From assembly GCA_018828125.1 (NCBI GenBank), contig JAHJWB010000016.1, positions 62,001 through 126,000 of the forward strand: 64,000 nt of DNA. The letters are read 5' to 3'. Shown in pieces: positions 31,632-39,681 of the stretch. The stretch's first letter is position 1. The number at the start of each line of letters is the position of its first letter. Below the pieces are notes generated by a model. That model worked only from the letters and a program-made list of their open reading frames with translations, made no database searches and had not been told where the DNA came from. The translations under genes were made by a program, and so were the position numbers. The DNA comes from Gammaproteobacteria bacterium (GTDB lineage Bacteria; Pseudomonadota; Gammaproteobacteria; Burkholderiales; Burkholderiaceae_C).

Positions 31632-32318
31632 ATGAAAATCTTGGTCATCGAGGACGAGAAGAGGATTTCGGACTTCGTCTGCGCAGGCTTGACGGAGCGC
31701 GGCTTCGAGGTGGAGGCCTGCGACAACGGCCAAACAGGCTTCGAACAGGCCCGCCTGGGCCAACATGACACGATCGTGCTCGACCTGATGCTGCCCGGGC
31801 GCGACGGCCTCTCGGTGCTGCGGGGTTTGCGCGCCGAAGGCATCACCACACCGGTGATTTTGCTGACCGCCCGCAATGAGCTGGGCGACCGCATCGAAGG
31901 GCTCAACCTGGGCGCCGATGACTACCTGGCCAAACCGTTCTACGTGGAGGAGCTGGCGGCCCGCATCCAGGCCTTGCTGAGGCGCCAGTCCGGCGAGCGG
32001 CAGAACACGATTCAGGTCGGACCGTTCATGCTCGACTGCATGGTGCGCCAGGTCACAGTCCATGGCCAGACGATCGAGCTCACCCCCCGCGAGTTTGCCC
32101 TCATCGAGTTGCTGATGCGCTCGCCGGGTCGCGTGTTGACGCGCACGCAGATGCTGGAACACGTGTGGGGCTACGACTTTGATCCGGCCACGAACGTGGT
32201 GGATGTCTGTGTCCAGCGGATCCGCCGAAAGATCGAGTCCATCGACGCTGGCGCGGGCAGCGCCTCGCCGATCGAGTCCGTTAGGGGTGTTGGCTACCGT
32301 TTCAGGGTGTTGCCGTGA
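31632..32318 (+). CDS. OmpR/QseB-type response regulator
   Basis: 228 residues. Receiver domain with IEDE (6-9), phospho-acceptor Asp51 in IVLDLMLPG and Lys in YLAKPF; winged helix-turn-helix C-terminal domain (ELTPREFALIELLMRSPGRV, NVVDVCVQRIRRKIE, VRGVGYRF). Co-translated with the kinase gene that follows (GTGA overlap). Probably controls the three exported-protein genes downstream and itself. Confidence 0.93.
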   Translation: MKILVIEDEKRISDFVCAGLTERGFEVEACDNGQTGFEQARLGQHDTIVLDLMLPGRDGLSVLRGLRAEGITTPVILLTARNELGDRIEGLNLGADDYLAKPFYVEELAARIQALLRRQSGERQNTIQVGPFMLDCMVRQVTVHGQTIELTPREFALIELLMRSPGRVLTRTQMLEHVWGYDFDPATNVVDVCVQRIRRKIESIDAGAGSASPIESVRGVGYRFRVLP

Positions 32319-33730: not shown

Positions 33731-33779
33731 GGTAAGCCAGCAAGGCCGCCACCTACGTGGCCGCCCACATCGCCGCCTT

Positions 33780-33797
33780 CATGACGAAGATGTCATT
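33780..33797 (+). promoter_or_regulatory. Response-regulator site 2, ATGAC-N6-GTCAT, before the exported-protein cluster
   Basis: CATGAC, four bases (GAAG), ATGTCATT. Identical outside the four-base spacer to the site at 31477-31494. Located 77 bases upstream of the first exported-protein gene, after the kinase gene. A shared operator for the adjacent response regulator is the simplest reading. Confidence 0.5.
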
Positions 33798-33873
33798 TTC
33801 CAAGGCGTGTTGCGTCTTACGATGGGGTGACCGAAAGGACATTCTCTTCGTCCATATCACCAGGAGCCATCAC

Positions 33874-34539
33874 ATGACACTTTCCAAACGACATCTGACG
33901 TTGCGCCTGGCAGGCGCTTTCCTGGCCGCCAGCCTGCCATTCGCTGCGGCAGCCGGCGAGTTCAAGGCCGAGGTCTGGGCCGACAACTGGTTCTCGCTCC
34001 ATGTCGGCGAGCGCTTCGTGGGCGAAGACTCGGTGCCGATCACCACCGAGCGCTCCTTCAACGCTGAAACGCTGCGTTTTAAGGCGGAATATCCGCTGAC
34101 GCTGAATTTCATCGTCAAAGACTTCAAAGAAAATGACACCGGGCTGGAATACATAGGCAGCCCCAGGCAGCAAATTGGCGACGGGGGTTTCATCATGCAA
34201 ATCACCGACACCACCACCAACAAGGTGGTGGCCGTGTCGAGCAGCGAAGTCAAGTGCCAGGTCATCCACAAGGCGCCGCTCAACCCGAGCTGCGCATCGA
34301 GCAGCAACCCGACTGTGGCGAGCTGCGGCGCCACCATCACCCAAGAGCCCGCGAACTGGAAGACGAGCGGCTTTGACACCAGCGCCTGGGCAAACGCCAC
34401 CGAGTACAGCGCCGAGGCGATTGGCGTCAAAGACGGTTACCACGACATCACCTGGAACCCGGCTGCAAAGCTGATCTGGGGCGCCGACCTGAAGGCCGAC
34501 AACACCTTGCTGTGCAAGCTCACGGTCAAGGCCCCGTGA
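33874..34539 (+). CDS. Exported protein of unknown function (beta-sandwich-like)
   Basis: 221 residues from ATG 33874, with CAGGAG upstream. Signal peptide about 1-27 (AGAFLAASLPFAAAAGEF). The mature part begins FKAEVWADNWFSLHVGERF and has a repeated strand-turn character with Cys residues (SEVKCQVIHK, NPSCASSS, VASCGATI, TLLCKLTV) that may form disulfides. I do not recognise a named family. It precedes a YHYH protein gene and is probably co-transcribed with it under the neighbouring two-component system. Confidence 0.72.
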   Translation: MTLSKRHLTLRLAGAFLAASLPFAAAAGEFKAEVWADNWFSLHVGERFVGEDSVPITTERSFNAETLRFKAEYPLTLNFIVKDFKENDTGLEYIGSPRQQIGDGGFIMQITDTTTNKVVAVSSSEVKCQVIHKAPLNPSCASSSNPTVASCGATITQEPANWKTSGFDTSAWANATEYSAEAIGVKDGYHDITWNPAAKLIWGADLKADNTLLCKLTVKAP

Positions 34540-34588: not shown

Positions 34589-36220
34589 ATGAAAACACCG
34601 ATTTCTCGCCCCACGTTGCAGGCCGTATTCGTCGCCGTTGCTGTGTCGTTCGGTAGCTTCACTTCCTTGAGCGCCATGGCCGCCACCGCCACCGGGGCAT
34701 CCCCGTTTGCCGTGGTGAGCGAAGCCGGGCCGGACGGCACCATGCCCAATGCCTACACCTGCGACGGCGCAGGCGCGACCCCTGCGCTCGCTTGGTCCAA
34801 CCCACCTGCGGGCACCCAAGAGTTCGCCTTGCTCATGAGCACGGTGCCACCCGATGGCGTCACCAAATACAACTGGGTGCTGTACGCCATCCCGGGCGCC
34901 ACGCGCCAGCTGAGCAAAGACAGCCACAACGTCGGCACCCTGGGCGCCGGCAGCAACGGCCCCACCGCCGCCTACCAACCGCCGTGTTCAAAGGGCCCGG
35001 GCCAAAAGAGCTACACCTTCACGGTGTACGCACTGTCGGCTGCGCCGGTGTTGCCCCAGGGCGCGCCCGTGTCAGGCCCTCAGCTTCTGAGCGCGATGCG
35101 TTCGATCACGCTGGGAACGGCAAGCCTGAGCCTGCACCACACCCGGTCGAACGAGAACGCCAACCGCAACCCACCGCCACAGCCGTCGAAGGCCGTGACC
35201 AGTGGCGCAGCTGCAACCGTGGGCATGACTTTGGTCGCTGCAACCACGCAAGCCCAAAACGAGGCCTGCGTCCGGGTGGCGAATTCGCTCAAAGCATCGA
35301 CCACTGGTGTGGCCACCGTGGAATGCGACAGCAACTACGCCTACGTGTCATCCAACGGCTTGCCCACCCACACCATGATGGACGGCATCGTCGCCAGCAA
35401 CCTGCAAGTGCCGATTGCGCAGAGTTTCTTCGGCGCCAACGCCTGGAAGATCCCGCTCAAACCCGCTATCGCCGCGACGACTACCACCGCGAACGACGGT
35501 CCGATCGGTGTTGCCATCAACGGCGTACCGATCTTCAATCCCTGCAAACAAGGTGGTTGCCAGAACGGTGACACCAAGGCGCTGGGTGAACTCGACGTAT
35601 GCAACGGCCACGCCGGCCGAGCCGACGACTACCACTACCATGCCGCCCCGACTTGCCTGATGGCCGGCAAGCCCGCCGGCTACTGGGACACCCATCCGCT
35701 GGGCTGGGCACTCGATGGCTTTGCGATCTTCGGCTACAACGACGCCGACGGCCGCGTGGCGTCGCGCGATGGTGTGTGTGGTGGCAACACCAGCGCCGTG
35801 GCCAACGCACCCTCGGGCTACAGCTACCACGTGACCGATGCGTCGCCCTACGTGTTGTCGTGTTTCAGGGGAACGCCCAGCCCGGACCTGGCTGGTCAAG
35901 GCGCCAAATTTTCGCCGATTCGGCAGCCGCCGGTGCGTCCCTTTGGCGTCTCTGCGATGACGCTGACGACCGACGCCGCAGATGGCTACCAGGTGCTCCA
36001 GTTCCAGTCGGACCGCCCGTTCACCAGCACTGCAACCGGCAGCGACAGTTACGCCAACAGCGCAGGCAGCTATCACATTCGCTACCAGACCGTCACGGGC
36101 CCCGAACTGGCGACCCTGCTCGCGCAGCGCGAGCACGCCGGCAAGTCCCAGTGCTGGAATTTCCAGTTCACCACCAGCGCCGGGCTCACCACCCAGCCCG
36201 CCGTCTCCTACTGCCGTTGA
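34589..36220 (+). CDS. Exported PEBP (YbhB/YbcL-like) - YHYH domain fusion protein
   Basis: 543 residues from ATG 34589. Signal peptide about 1-31 (ends SLSAMAA). A PEBP-like domain (about 37-185) has YTCDGAGATPALAWSNPP and YNWVLYAIPG. A Pro/Asn-rich linker follows (about 187-200). Then a second hydrophobic, signal-peptide-like segment, AATVGMTLVAATTQAQ (208-223), leads into a YHYH domain with DDYHYHAAP (346-354), HPLGWALDGFAIFGYND and SCFRGTPSPDL. The internal pseudo-signal suggests that two adjacent exported-protein genes fused. YHYH proteins are exported and of unknown function. PEBPs bind lipid or small ligands. Confidence 0.8.
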   Translation: MKTPISRPTLQAVFVAVAVSFGSFTSLSAMAATATGASPFAVVSEAGPDGTMPNAYTCDGAGATPALAWSNPPAGTQEFALLMSTVPPDGVTKYNWVLYAIPGATRQLSKDSHNVGTLGAGSNGPTAAYQPPCSKGPGQKSYTFTVYALSAAPVLPQGAPVSGPQLLSAMRSITLGTASLSLHHTRSNENANRNPPPQPSKAVTSGAAATVGMTLVAATTQAQNEACVRVANSLKASTTGVATVECDSNYAYVSSNGLPTHTMMDGIVASNLQVPIAQSFFGANAWKIPLKPAIAATTTTANDGPIGVAINGVPIFNPCKQGGCQNGDTKALGELDVCNGHAGRADDYHYHAAPTCLMAGKPAGYWDTHPLGWALDGFAIFGYNDADGRVASRDGVCGGNTSAVANAPSGYSYHVTDASPYVLSCFRGTPSPDLAGQGAKFSPIRQPPVRPFGVSAMTLTTDAADGYQVLQFQSDRPFTSTATGSDSYANSAGSYHIRYQTVTGPELATLLAQREHAGKSQCWNFQFTTSAGLTTQPAVSYCR

Positions 36221-36222
36221 CC

Positions 36223-36801
36223 ATGACACCGTTCAAGCACCTTTTTGCTGGCTTGCTGTGCGTGTTGCTGACCATGACCGGCGTCGGGTCCGCCGGCGCA
36301 CACGGACTGGCAGAGAACCGCGCCACGCTCGTGCTGCGCGACCAGAACCATCTCTCGGTGGCGCTGTTCATCACGTTCTCCGAAGCCTTGCATCGCGTGC
36401 TTGCTCCGGACCGCAGCTTTCAGGAATTCGTTCTGGCACATGCGGCGATGCCGCCAGAGGTTTTCAAGTCGGCGCTGCTTGAGGCTGAGCGCCGCTTCCA
36501 GGCCGAGACGCTGGCCGAAACCGCTGATGGCGATCAACTTTTGTTCGAACGCTGGACCTGGCCCGATGCCGCCACCGTGCAACAGGCGCTGCGCGAACGC
36601 GCCATGCAGGCGCTTGTGGCGCCAACTGACCACGCGCACGAAGCGGCGTTCGAAGTCCGGGCCGACTGCCAGGCCGCCAAGGCCATCCACTCGGTGCGCG
36701 TGAGCTTCCCGTCAGCGTTTGCGCGTGTATTGGTCGTGTCATACCAGCCAAAGCAGGTTTGGGTCGAGCCTCAGCGCGCATCGCCGGAGATCACGTTCTA
36801 G
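36223..36801 (+). CDS. Exported protein of unknown function
   Basis: 192 residues from ATG 36223, two bases after the stop of the PEBP-YHYH gene. Signal peptide about 1-26 (CVLLTMTGVGSAGAHG). The mature region has LVLRDQNHLSVALFITFSEA and later VRVSFPSAFARVLVVSYQPK; one Cys. No family recognised. The tight spacing indicates coupling with the fusion gene; the three exported proteins may act together in the periplasm. Confidence 0.7.
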   Translation: MTPFKHLFAGLLCVLLTMTGVGSAGAHGLAENRATLVLRDQNHLSVALFITFSEALHRVLAPDRSFQEFVLAHAAMPPEVFKSALLEAERRFQAETLAETADGDQLLFERWTWPDAATVQQALRERAMQALVAPTDHAHEAAFEVRADCQAAKAIHSVRVSFPSAFARVLVVSYQPKQVWVEPQRASPEITF

Positions 36802-37160: not shown

Positions 37161-38213
37161 TCAAAGCAGCTTCGCCGCTGGGTTGTCGCTGGAGGGGCGG
37201 TAGTACCCAACGACGCTAGCAACACTCCGGTGTCCTGTCATCGCCATGGTGTCAGCCAAGGGCACTTTTTGGACTGCGGCTTCAGTCACAAAGCCAGACC
37301 GCAGCGAGTGCGCAGAAAACACCTCCGGCAGCCCGGCAAGTTTTGCTCGCTCTCGAACAATATCTCGTACGGCAGCAGGGGAGAGCGGCGCGCCAAGGTG
37401 CCCGCCTTTCCTGACCTGTCTAAATACTGCACCGTCCACGATGCCCGAAGCCGTCAACCAGTCCTGCAGAGCTTCGCCCGCAATGCCCTCCAGCGGTTTC
37501 ACGTTCTCCGGACGATCCGCCGCAGACTGGTTGCTTTTGGAATAGGCGAGGGTGTAGGTGAAGCTGCTCGGCCCCACGCGGTGAAGATTCTTCATCGTCG
37601 CCCCCGTCACTTCAGACCGGCGGCGCCCGCCCGAAGCCCAGGCAAAGAGGAGGAGGGCACGGTCACGGATGCCCTTGAGTGATTCGTCACAGGTGTCCAG
37701 GATTGCCATCAATGGGTCCTTGGTCAGCGCATCCTTCTTCTGCGGAAGCGCGCCACGTTTGCCGTGGGCCCGGCGTGTCTTTGCCAACAACTCGCGGACT
37801 TTAGGGTCCTGGCAAGGGTTTTTCAACTCTCGGAGCTGATGAGCCTTCGACAGTACAGCGATCCGGTGGATCAAGGTGTTGAGCGCCATCGGGCCTGGCT
37901 TGCCTTTGAATCCTGCATCCACCAGCGCTTGGTCAATCGCAGGCGGTAGTTCGTGAGCCAGTCCATCGGCAGTAGTCCGCTGCGCGTGATCCACGATGAA
38001 CTGCAGGACGGCGTTCGCCGGCAGTGGCAGCGTGATGCCTTGCCCGTACCGAACGCGAAACCAGGCGGCCCAGTAGCGCAGCGCGGAGCGATAGCTTGCC
38101 AACGTGTTCGCAGACTCCCCCTCACGCATCAATTCTTCAACGGCCTGCGCAGTCACCTGAGACAGGGAAGACGGCTCCAGCGAGGGAACATTTCTCAGAG
38201 ACGGCAGGCGCAT
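37161..38213 (-). CDS. Tyrosine recombinase / site-specific integrase
   Basis: 350 residues from ATG 38213. N-terminal core-binding-like helices (SANTLASYRSALRYWAAWF, about 35-55) are followed by a catalytic domain with the first Arg in ASGGRRRSEV, the HxxR in AHSLRSGFVTEA, and GHRSVASVVGYYRP, which supplies the second His and the catalytic Tyr. Family length is normal. Divergent from the KfrA-like gene with 130 bases between starts; KfrA-integrase pairs of this type recur on betaproteobacterial elements. Probably active; target site not known. Confidence 0.88.
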   Translation of the reverse strand: MRLPSLRNVPSLEPSSLSQVTAQAVEELMREGESANTLASYRSALRYWAAWFRVRYGQGITLPLPANAVLQFIVDHAQRTTADGLAHELPPAIDQALVDAGFKGKPGPMALNTLIHRIAVLSKAHQLRELKNPCQDPKVRELLAKTRRAHGKRGALPQKKDALTKDPLMAILDTCDESLKGIRDRALLLFAWASGGRRRSEVTGATMKNLHRVGPSSFTYTLAYSKSNQSAADRPENVKPLEGIAGEALQDWLTASGIVDGAVFRQVRKGGHLGAPLSPAAVRDIVRERAKLAGLPEVFSAHSLRSGFVTEAAVQKVPLADTMAMTGHRSVASVVGYYRPSSDNPAAKLL

Positions 38214-38286
38214 GGTTGAAATTAAGGTTGGGAAAATCAATTTTGAACAAAAACTACATATGATGTATTGTTTACAACTAATTATG

Positions 38287-38318
38287 GTGATGGATCACGA
38301 TAACCATCAATTATCGTG
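38287..38318 (+). promoter_or_regulatory. Overlapping palindromes between integrase and kfrA
   Basis: GTGAT-GG-ATCAC at 38287-38298 and CACGATAA, seven bases, TTATCGTG at 38296-38318 are both perfect inverted repeats, sharing three bases. They lie 26-57 bases before kfrA in an AT-rich stretch that should hold both promoters. KfrA proteins bind their own promoter, so these are operator candidates. Confidence 0.55.
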
Positions 38319-38343
38319 GGTAAATTTAGGATGGAGTAGGGCG

Positions 38344-39345
38344 ATGCAGGCAAAAATTGTTCGAGGTCCGCGTGGTGTGCAAATGCAAGAGGTCTGGGCA
38401 GCCGCCGATACCGTCCTCAGCCTGGGCGAGCGGCCGACGATTGAGCGCGTGCGACAACAGCTCGGCCGTGGCTCCCCAAATACCGTCGGGCCGATGCTCG
38501 ACGGCTGGTACAGCTCCCTTGCGAAGCGACTGCAGGCGGTACCGAGCAACTCCGCGGAAGAAGAACCTGAGTCCAAAGAACCCATCCCGGCCGCCGTAAT
38601 CAGAGCCGCGAAGGCCATGTGGGGAAGGGCGCTTCAACACGCCGAAGAGCGGGCTGCGAACAATTTCGCCCAGCGGCGGGAAGAGTTGAGCGCTCAGGCT
38701 GAAGCCCTACAAAGGGCGCAGGGCGAGTTGGAGCAGGATGCGCGGCGTTTGGCCGACCGCAGCGCGGCATATGAGTTAGCGATGCAGGCCCGCGATGCCC
38801 AAATTGCCGACCTCGGCAGGCTGACCCAGGATCTGCAGCAGCAGCTCTTGAACAGCCAACATATCCTGGACGCCACACGCGCGGAATGCTTGCAATTGCG
38901 CCTTGCGACAGATGCGGAGCGGCGGCGCCAAGAGGTCAGGGAGGCGGAACACCAATCCGAGCGCGCGCGACTGGAAGAACGTGCCCAGGCGCAGGAGCGC
39001 AGGTTGAACGCGGAGGTGGACCGGGCACGACAAGAATCGAAAAGACTCGCACAACAGGTTGATAACGAGAGTAAGAAGGCCGCCAAATCACTCGCCGATG
39101 CGATGGACAGGGCGCGCGAATTCGAAACTCAACATGGGGCTTTGGAGATCGAAAAGGCAAGTCTTTCCCAAGAGTTGCAACTGGCTCGAGAAGAAATCAA
39201 AGAACTTAAAGCGAAACTAGATGAGAGGAGCAACGATATGTTTGCCGTGCTCACCGAACTACGGGATCGGTTGCCCCCAAGCCCCTTCCAAGAAACTACT
39301 CCGCACGGAAGGATTAGAAAGACGAAAGTTAAACGCAAGGTTTAA
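38344..39345 (+). CDS. kfrA: KfrA-like DNA-binding coiled-coil protein
   Basis: 333 residues from ATG 38344, with GGAGTAGGG upstream; an earlier in-frame ATG runs through the promoter. The N-terminal KfrA_N domain (about 10-60) has VWAAADTVLSLGERPTIERV and RGSPNTVGPMLDGWY, a helix-turn-helix seen in plasmid KfrA. From about 85 to 315 it is one long coiled coil (Glu/Ala/Arg/Gln rich). Basic C-terminus KTKVKRKV. On plasmids KfrA is an autoregulated, filament-like partition accessory; here it sits by an integrase on what looks like chromosomal DNA and may regulate the element. Confidence 0.85.
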   Translation: MQAKIVRGPRGVQMQEVWAAADTVLSLGERPTIERVRQQLGRGSPNTVGPMLDGWYSSLAKRLQAVPSNSAEEEPESKEPIPAAVIRAAKAMWGRALQHAEERAANNFAQRREELSAQAEALQRAQGELEQDARRLADRSAAYELAMQARDAQIADLGRLTQDLQQQLLNSQHILDATRAECLQLRLATDAERRRQEVREAEHQSERARLEERAQAQERRLNAEVDRARQESKRLAQQVDNESKKAAKSLADAMDRAREFETQHGALEIEKASLSQELQLAREEIKELKAKLDERSNDMFAVLTELRDRLPPSPFQETTPHGRIRKTKVKRKV

Positions 39346-39369
39346 CGAGCGGAACGGTCGAGCCAGACT

Positions 39370-39681
39370 TCAGGGATGATCTGGATCAAATTCGTCACTG
39401 GTAGCCTGGCCAGCTATCTGCAGGATCGCCATCACTCTATTAAGTCCAGCCGGGATTAGAGCGGCATCTTCTGGGCTAGCTCCGTCAATCTGAGCGTTTG
39501 GTTTGGCCAACCACTCTCTTGCACGCTCCCACGATTGGAAGGCTGCAAATGCGGACTCAGCCAGCATTGCCAAGCGCTCATAGGCCGGACTTCCGAGTTC
39601 CCGGCCTACTGGGGGCATCGTATCGTGCCAAGCGGGGGCCGACTGGGTCAACCGGTTCTTTAGCTTTGCACTTTCTGGCAT
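39370..39681 (-). CDS. DUF2384 (MbcA/ParS/Xre antitoxin-like) protein, unpaired
   Basis: 103 residues. The second half, LAESAFAAFQSWERAREWLA followed by SPEDAALIPAGLNRVMAILQI, follows the antitoxin C-terminal pattern (vF-x-s-x-ekAx-WL ... sPldll-x-x-G-x-x-V). These proteins usually partner a RES-domain toxin, but no RES gene is present nearby; the next gene downstream is kfrA on the other strand. It is convergent with kfrA, 24 bases apart. Possibly an orphan antitoxin or a regulator of the element. Confidence 0.65.
   Translation of the reverse strand: MPESAKLKNRLTQSAPAWHDTMPPVGRELGSPAYERLAMLAESAFAAFQSWERAREWLAKPNAQIDGASPEDAALIPAGLNRVMAILQIAGQATSDEFDPDHP

What the first reader, a model, noticed from the sequence alone, without database searches (positions are those of the whole stretch)
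34589..36220. PEBP-YHYH fusion with an internal signal-peptide-like segment
The protein has a normal signal peptide, a PEBP domain, then a hydrophobic segment (208-223) ending AQ like a second signal peptide, then a YHYH domain. It looks like two exported-protein genes merged in frame. Neither YHYH proteins nor this combination has, to my knowledge, a known role.
Basis: partly seen in the sequence, partly recalled or inferred. Interest (0 to 1): 0.6.

Follow-up and report, generated by a model that had tools for sequence, protein, structure and literature searches.

The report
Secreted PEBP–YHYH protein with conserved partners
A bacterial exported protein that joins two poorly understood domains turns out to be an old, conserved fusion that nearly always lies next to the same unnamed exported partner, which suggests that they work together outside the cell, perhaps in handling metals.

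Summary
In detail: 34589-36220 encodes 543 aa with a signal peptide, a PEBP domain, a YHYH domain and a hydrophobic stretch at 208-223. The reading as two signal-peptide genes merged does not. The same gene is one colinear frame in 33 of 44 related loci from several phyla. The interdomain linker is 7-13 aa in 32 of them, 34 aa in the sister L001 (A/T/P-rich, not hydrophobic) and 41 aa in the window: a late linker expansion.

The fusion is part of an apparently undescribed exported module. A second protein ("DN", no Pfam family, invariant histidine at the predicted mature N-terminus) follows in 32 of 34 fusion loci; the other two end at contig edges. A third ("UP") lies upstream in the window. 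In Myxococcota and a Loktanella plasmid these components are separate neighbouring genes; other fusions (UP-PEBP-YHYH, UP-YHYH) occur. The PEBP domain has lost the family's five charged pocket residues. Neighbours in some loci (MbnP/MbnH, HupE, heavy-metal-like two-component genes, metallophosphoesterases) make extracytoplasmic metal handling, perhaps copper, the likeliest role. That role is inferred, not shown.

The parts
31632..32318 (+). OmpR-type response regulator; best NCBIfam match heavy-metal type cztR_silR_copR, below its cut-off
   Evidence: Pfam; NCBIfam 220.8 bits vs cut-off 279.2; homologues beside the fusion in L001, L002, L004, L011, L030
32315..33730 (+). sensor histidine kinase; best NCBIfam match heavy-metal type cztS_silS_copS, below its cut-off
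   Evidence: Pfam; NCBIfam 226.4 bits vs 292.55
33874..34539 (+). UP: exported 221-aa protein ('WADNWF' family), weakly like rhamnosidase N-terminal domains; start chosen by eye within ORF 33757-34539
   Evidence: no Pfam hit at 0.01; 4 of 9 family members weakly match Bac_rhamnosid_N, best E 0.00064; near or fused to YHYH in other genomes
34589..36220 (+). PEBP-YHYH fusion protein, 543 aa
   Evidence: 33 colinear relatives
34589..34681 (+). N-terminal signal peptide (about residues 1-31)
   Evidence: hydropathy; cleavage site judged by eye
34739..35128 (+). PEBP domain (51-180), canonical charged pocket residues replaced
   Evidence: fold Z 20.9 to 3n08, rmsd 1.6, 145 aligned; residue counts
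   Evidence: 7-13 aa in 32 relatives, 34 aa in L001
35261..35938 (+). YHYH domain region (225-450) with invariant H341, H349, H351, H369, D376, H414 and several invariant Cys
   Evidence: Pfam 286-384; invariant columns over 34 rows
35942..36217 (+). C-terminal beta-rich part (452-543), shortened in L028, L029, L031, L033
   Evidence: pLDDT about 75-94 in the models; HMM hits
36223..36801 (+). DN: exported 192-aa partner; predicted mature N-terminus is His27 (36301)
   Evidence: starts 2 bp after the fusion stop; homologue at 32 of 34 fusion loci; invariant His and Arg; no Pfam family

Best explanation
SHOWN: the protein is a PEBP-YHYH fusion present as one gene in several phyla (by record titles, many of them metagenome bins), and the hydrophobic stretch is confined to the window. 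The fusion recurs with DN directly downstream and, in a few lineages, with UP; PEBP, YHYH, DN and UP also occur as separate adjacent genes and in other fusions. INFERRED: the parts are exported and act together on the cell surface or in the periplasm, as a complex or relay. The YHYH domain provides a His/Asp metal site held by disulfides. DN provides another metal ligand at its N-terminal histidine. UP is a carbohydrate-binding-like anchor. The PEBP domain, having lost the canonical charged pocket, is a binding or docking part with a different ligand. The most likely role is handling of a transition metal, best guess copper, switched on in some Burkholderiales by the adjacent two-component system. 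Likelihoods: PEBP-YHYH-DN is a conserved functional unit about 0.9; UP belongs to it about 0.75; metal handling about 0.45; copper specifically about 0.3.
For: 33 of 44 loci carry the colinear fusion (L031 among them is cut by its contig end). DN follows in 32 of 34 fusion loci (in L013 in the same frame); L020 and L031 end at contig edges. A DN profile found nothing in 298 of 300 genomes of the order; its two hits, G000 and G233, are fusion carriers, but both had given rows to the profile. UP: 6 of 303 class genomes match, among them all 5 with a YHYH of this type; four of these gave rows to the UP profile because UP was seen beside YHYH, so only G495 (has YHYH, on another contig) and G588 (no YHYH found) are independent. 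Unfused operons: YHYH>DN>PEBP>UP in L114; YHYH>DN-like>PEBP in L038, L110, L112, where the DN-like protein is recognised by position and its A-H start, not by the DN profile; YHYH>PEBP>UP in Loktanella salsilacus. Other fusions: UP-PEBP-YHYH in L088, UP-YHYH in L087, HupE_UreJ_2-YHYH in L115. Metal context: in L016 MbnP (248.3 bits, cut-off 140) and MbnH (432.8, cut-off 362.85) directly upstream, with a CusF domain over cut-off and a multicopper oxidase best matched by CueO below its cut-off; heavy-metal models are the best NCBIfam match of 4 of 4 regulators and 3 of 3 kinases tested; HupE_UreJ_2 beside L021. DN: His at the mature start invariant in 35 of 35 rows, a second His in 90% or more. 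YHYH His and Asp invariant in 34 rows.
Against: MbnP/MbnH occur at 1 of 34 fusion loci, HupE at 1 of 34, the two-component pair at 5 of 34 plus the window, Spy-like genes at 4 of 34 (L013 weaker). All regulator and kinase matches are below the curated cut-offs, and for the regulator PhoB models score only 20-37 bits lower. Spy-like genes of the fusion loci match LTXXQ below its cut-off. No DN member matches HupE, CopC or another metal family in Pfam; three attempts at a DN-HupE profile comparison gave no result. Metallophosphoesterases are the commonest neighbours and could point to phosphate chemistry. UP is near the fusion in only L001, L013 and L021 of 34 loci. YHYH genes of other branches in the order (L089-L094, L096) have no PEBP, DN or UP nearby, and three Elusimicrobia genomes with PEBPs of this branch have no YHYH. 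YHYH has no solved relative and a poor model. No metal, complex or expression was measured.
Confidence: 0.45

Rival explanations
1. The module is an extracellular phosphate-ester or glycophosphate scavenging complex: metallophosphoesterases cut, UP binds the glycan, the YHYH domain is a second metal-dependent hydrolase, the PEBP domain binds the phosphorylated product.
For: Metallophosphoesterase-like genes at 11 of 34 fusion loci, about 0.6 expected from the genomes' own density; one such domain in the same frame as PEBP-YHYH in L017, below the Pfam cut-offs but strongly similar to the neighbours'; several in a row in L005 and L027; UP weakly resembles sugar-binding domains; YHYH predicted hydrolase in PMC7824862 (passage); PhoB models are runners-up for the regulator.
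Against: PEBP pocket residues proposed as the active or anion site are lost; the kinase scores far lower with PhoR than with the heavy-metal model (127.9 vs 226.4 bits); MbnP/MbnH and HupE neighbours are not phosphate genes; none of the window genes scanned between 29989 and 40872 is a calcineurin-type phosphoesterase.
Confidence: 0.25
2. Surface-display or adhesion protein: PEBP-YHYH is a compact cap carried on fn3/TIG stalks, with UP as lectin; no metal chemistry.
For: fn3 or TIG domains precede the fusion in L030, L013, L017; related PEBP domains sit in long PKD proteins of Elusimicrobia.
Against: Does not explain the invariant His/Asp set in YHYH, the DN partner or the metal-type neighbours.
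Confidence: 0.15
3. One reading: two exported-protein genes merged in frame, the second signal peptide kept and perhaps cleaved at about residue 223.
For: A hydrophobic stretch ending AQ exists; unfused neighbours exist in other phyla.
Against: Fusion shared by 33 relatives, 32 of them with short linkers; the sister L001 lacks the hydrophobic stretch.
Confidence: 0.03
4. Annotation or sequencing artefact joining two frames.
For: None found.
Against: Open frame in the window; same colinear protein in 33 other loci, including cultured Inhella and Undibacterium.
Confidence: 0.01

Closest known systems
PEBP / YbhB-YbcL family (PF01161, TIGR00481)
   Same: Sequence family over Pfam cut-off; fold Z 19.1-20.9 to E. 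coli YbcL and YbhB and Chlamydia CT736.
   Different: The five charged residues described for the family (two Asp, two His, one Arg; PMC8793217, passages) are replaced: T85, P87, N95, K140 and a variable 141; below the TIGR00481 cut-off; fused and in a recurrent gene cluster, whereas that paper says such associations are rare (section 7 part 1).
YHYH domain (PF14240)
   Same: Over Pfam cut-off; conserved His/Asp set compatible with the Zn site predicted in PMC7824862.
   Different: That paper describes YHYH in phage tails; the window's YHYH part matches no record of the phage collection at E 1e-5. Fused to PEBP and with its own C-terminal part.
MbnP/MbnH copper gene pair (TIGR04052/TIGR04039)
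   Same: Directly upstream of the fusion in L016.
   Different: Only 1 of 34 fusion loci; neither DN nor the fusion matched these models where scanned with NCBIfam.
HupE/UreJ_2 (PF13795) exported N-terminal domains
   Same: His directly after the predicted signal peptide, by eye; HupE fused to YHYH in L115.
   Different: No DN member matches PF13795; the window DN has no permease part.

Membership tests
PEBP superfamily (PF01161) | sequence match over the curated cut-off and PEBP fold | tested here: met
   58.3 bits vs 24; Z 20.9, rmsd 1.6, 145 aligned
PEBP superfamily (PF01161) | conserved charged quintet (D, D, H, H, R) around the pocket | tested here: not met
   T85, N95, K140 in 34 of 34, P87 in 31 of 34, position 141 variable; the 10 control PEBPs of the own genome and genus have H at 95 in 10 of 10 and H at 140 in 9 of 10 (after removing three copies of the window from that group). 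Mapping of the two Asp and the Arg is read from the alignment
YbhB/YbcL subfamily (TIGR00481) | score over curated cut-off | tested here: not met
   30.7 vs 57.75 bits
YHYH (PF14240) | score over curated cut-off | tested here: met
   66.2 vs 25 bits, profile 2-110 of 193
YHYH (PF14240) | three conserved His and one Asp (predicted metal site) | tested here: inconclusive
   H341, H349, H351 and D376 are invariant in 34 rows, but the passage seen does not say which residues it means; the mapping is mine
YHYH (PF14240) | metal binding and hydrolase activity | not testable with these tools
   seen only as a prediction
HupE/UreJ_2 or CopC (for DN) | Pfam match | tested here: not met
   neither is among the 9 families matched by any of 35 DN members at E 1
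Heavy-metal two-component system (TIGR01387/TIGR01386) | score over curated cut-off | tested here: not met
   best model in the library, but 220.8 vs 279.2 and 226.4 vs 292.55
Merged two-signal-peptide gene | internal hydrophobic segment shared with relatives | tested here: not met
   linker 7-13 aa in 32 of 33 relatives, non-hydrophobic in L001

The most novel reading that the evidence does not exclude
An undescribed four-part exported machine (UP, PEBP, YHYH, DN), shuffled between operons and fusions across at least four phyla, that loads, senses or oxidises a transition metal outside the cytoplasm: YHYH is a new metalloenzyme fold, DN a new protein with an N-terminal-histidine metal site, and the PEBP fold is recruited with a rebuilt pocket.
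Probability: 0.25. Interest if true: 0.8.

Novelty: new variant of a known kind. Interest (0 to 1): 0.55.

Why it matters
YHYH proteins and bacterial PEBPs have no settled function. A recurrent module with two further families unknown to Pfam, several fusion states and, in places, copper-type neighbours turns both into a testable question, and cultured hosts (Inhella, Undibacterium, Loktanella) exist. It also shows a PEBP branch that kept the fold but lost the pocket residues on which a current functional idea for the family rests (PMC8793217).

Tried and rejected
Second signal peptide and sequencing artefact: rejected (see rivals). Phage origin: no match of the YHYH part at E 1e-5 in 50,697 phage records. 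Plasmids: 4 records at E 1e-20, none covering 80% of the fusion. Fold of YHYH: model mean pLDDT 58.5, no Foldseek match at E 0.001 or better, so nothing is claimed about its fold; the pdb_via look at the full model tested in effect only residues 28-200. DN against HupE by profile comparison gave no result and is left open. An overlap p-value for UP and YHYH (3e-10) is withdrawn: the UP profile was built partly from the very genomes tested; without the four source genomes one of two UP genomes (G495) has YHYH. The likelihood for UP is lowered for that reason to 0.75. 'MPE' hits on the fusion ORF itself were left out of the count. Three copies of the window in the control group were removed before counting. 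L014 is interrupted inside PEBP: counted among the 34 fusion loci, not among the 33 colinear ones. L041 holds a PEBP cut by the contig end and cannot be classed. L024/L025, L020/L022 and L007/L009 are near-copies, so the 33 are not 33 independent events. The tree took only YHYH parts with E under 1e-35 and over 150 aa, so L088 and the other YHYH branches are not in it; its root is a midpoint and the tool warns of long branches (L087, L115). The Loktanella PEBP (L140) was not in the pocket counts; by eye it keeps a His near the second site.

Full report
WHAT IS THERE. The gene at 34589-36220 (+) encodes 543 aa with an N-terminal signal peptide, a PEBP domain (51-180), a linker, a YHYH domain (Pfam 286-384) and a C-terminal beta-rich part. 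The hydrophobic stretch at about 202-223 is the strongest outside the N-terminal region, mean hydropathy 1.45 against 1.94.

IS IT TWO GENES MERGED? A search of one genome per species gave 44 loci. In 33 of them PEBP and YHYH are in one colinear frame (L031 is cut by its contig end); L014 is interrupted inside PEBP; L035 is a YHYH fragment; the other nine (L036-L044) hold PEBP without fused YHYH, L038 with a separate YHYH gene, and L041 is cut by the contig end. The linker, measured as the stretch aligned to residues 186-226 of the window, is 7-13 aa in 32 of the 33, 34 aa in L001 (81% identical in the best segment; A/T/P-rich, not hydrophobic) and 41 aa in the window. A tree of the YHYH part separates the 10 rows not fused to PEBP from the fused ones by one branch and pairs window with L001 (100/99); the pair sits inside the fused group beside Burkholderiales, but the forks that place it there have 81-96% support and none is starred. 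The plainest reading is a late expansion of a short linker. L088, with UP-PEBP-YHYH in one frame, was too divergent for this tree and may be a separate fusion event.

PARTNERS. The next gene downstream (36223-36801, 2 bp after the stop) encodes an exported 192-aa protein, here called DN, without Pfam family or solved relative. A homologue is found at 32 of 34 fusion loci; L020 and L031 end at contig edges. In L013 it is in the same frame as the fusion, with its signal-peptide-like segment inside, which may be an assembly error. In the order, a DN profile hit 2 of 300 genomes, G000 and G233; both carry the fusion and both gave rows to the profile, so the informative part is the absence in the other 298 (at most 12 candidates per genome were scored). 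DN rows share a His directly at the predicted signal peptidase site, mostly A-x-A|H, invariant in 35 of 35 rows, an invariant Arg, and a second His in 90% or more. The gene upstream in the window (33874-34539, UP) is also exported. It lies near or is fused to YHYH in L001, L013 (partial), L021, L085, L087, L088, L111, L113 and L114 and on two Rhodobacterales plasmids, where the records call it 'PEBP family protein' although Pfam finds no PEBP domain in the Loktanella copy. In the class, UP was found in 6 of 303 genomes and this type of YHYH in 5 of 369; the 5 are among the 6. Four of the 5 (G000, G476, G633, G682) gave rows to the UP profile because UP was seen beside YHYH, so this is not an independent test. 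Of the two others, G495 has YHYH, on a different contig, and G588 has DUF3500 > a DN-like gene (by eye) > UP and no YHYH found.

UNFUSED STATES. Of six Myxococcota genomes with such a YHYH (6 of 235 sampled), L114 has YHYH > DN > PEBP > UP; L038, L110 and L112 have YHYH > an exported protein with the same A-H start, recognised by eye and not by the DN profile > PEBP; L111 has YHYH > DN with UP on the other strand nearby; L113 has UP > YHYH close to the contig edge. Loktanella salsilacus has YHYH > PEBP > UP > a second YHYH. So separate, adjacent PEBP and YHYH genes exist, but I saw none in the fused order. Against a universal link: YHYH genes of other branches in the order (seven contexts, L089-L094 and L096) have no PEBP, DN or UP within the 7-13 kb examined, and three Elusimicrobia genomes with PEBPs of this branch have no YHYH at E 1e-5.

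POCKET. Five charged residues are described as conserved in the PEBP family (PMC8793217, passages). Here none is kept: T85, N95 and K140 are in 34 of 34 rows, P87 in 31 of 34 and position 141 varies (the mapping of the two Asp and the Arg is read from the alignments). Ten control PEBPs (the own-genome paralogue and nine of the genus) keep His at the two positions in 10 and 9 of 10. The four unfused Myxococcota PEBPs already have N95 (4 of 4) and K or M at 140 (2 and 2); 18 PEBP domains of L036-L044 have N (13) or Y (5) and K (10) or R (8). The change is therefore not confined to the fusion.

CONTEXT AND LIKELY FUNCTION. L016 has, in tightly packed genes, a CueO-like oxidase, MbnP, MbnH with a CusF domain, PEBP-YHYH and DN. 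MbnP/MbnH are described as a widely conserved pair of unclear relevance in PMC3621798 (passages); NCBIfam names MbnP a copper-binding protein. L115 fuses HupE_UreJ_2 to YHYH, followed by a metallophosphoesterase. In the window and in L001, L002, L004, L011, L030 an OmpR-type regulator and a kinase lie upstream; in the proteins tested (regulators of window, L002, L004, L011; kinases of window, L002, L004) the best models are the heavy-metal ones, all below the cut-offs, with PhoB 20-37 bits lower for the regulators (an L020 ORF in the same call matched nothing). Metallophosphoesterase-like genes lie at 11 of 34 fusion loci within 0.29 Mb of flank in total. They were found by similarity to seed genes from L002, L005 and L027, and Pfam was run on those seeds only. 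The 18 genomes tested have 5-21 Metallophos matches in 2.4-11.9 Mb, about 2 per Mb, so under one locus would be expected by chance; near-copies among loci and the different search methods weaken this comparison. Together these favour extracytoplasmic metal handling, copper first, with phosphate-ester chemistry as the main rival. No step of the biochemistry is shown.

DISTRIBUTION. Among 47 same-genus genomes the fusion is in the own genome only; the other listed matches cover the PEBP part. PF14240 is in 16 of 399 genomes of the order. The block shared with L001 runs from the regulator to DN; the flanking window genes tested (29989 gene, integrase, KfrA-like, SDR) have no match in L001. Just beyond the block lie a phage-type integrase and a KfrA_N gene. 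This fits horizontal spread, though GC shows no break at the block (0.60-0.65) and drops to 0.51 only at 39-40 kb.

LITERATURE. No held paper has both YHYH and phosphatidylethanolamine-binding. 'YHYH domain' or 'YHYH protein' is in three papers; I saw one passage of PMC7824862. Whole-word YHYH gave 26 papers, seen as a listing only. I found no description of this module; most subscription papers are not held. Resemblance of DN's start to histidine-brace or CopC-type proteins is recalled, not tested beyond Pfam.

Noticed in passing
L140:8565-9212 and L141:6316-6957: The label 'PEBP family protein' sits on UP proteins; Pfam finds no PEBP domain in the L140 copy. The name was perhaps carried over from fusion proteins.
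   Followed up: yes
L036, L037, L039, L040: Elusimicrobia carry PEBP domains of the same branch in about 1,180-1,330 aa proteins with PKD repeats and a Spy-like part, followed by a stand-alone PEBP gene, a Spy-like gene and, in L036, L037 and L040, a metallophosphoesterase-like gene.
   Followed up: partly
L115:677-2668: HupE_UreJ_2 permease-type protein fused to a YHYH domain, followed by two metallophosphoesterase-like genes (the first checked with Pfam).
   Followed up: partly
L013:3707-6541: PEBP-YHYH-DN in one frame with DN's signal-peptide-like segment inside; may be a frameshift in a metagenome assembly.
   Followed up: no
L138:5312-7770 (minus strand): DUF3500 gene, DN-like exported gene and UP in a row in a genome where no YHYH of this type was found.
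   Followed up: partly
window 37164-39681: Phage-type integrase, KfrA_N protein and a gene with an Xre/MbcA/ParS antitoxin C-terminal domain directly after DN: a possible mobile-element edge.
   Followed up: partly
L017:2373-6065: Metallophosphoesterase-like, TIG, PEBP and YHYH domains in one 1,231-aa frame (phosphoesterase below Pfam cut-off).
   Followed up: partly
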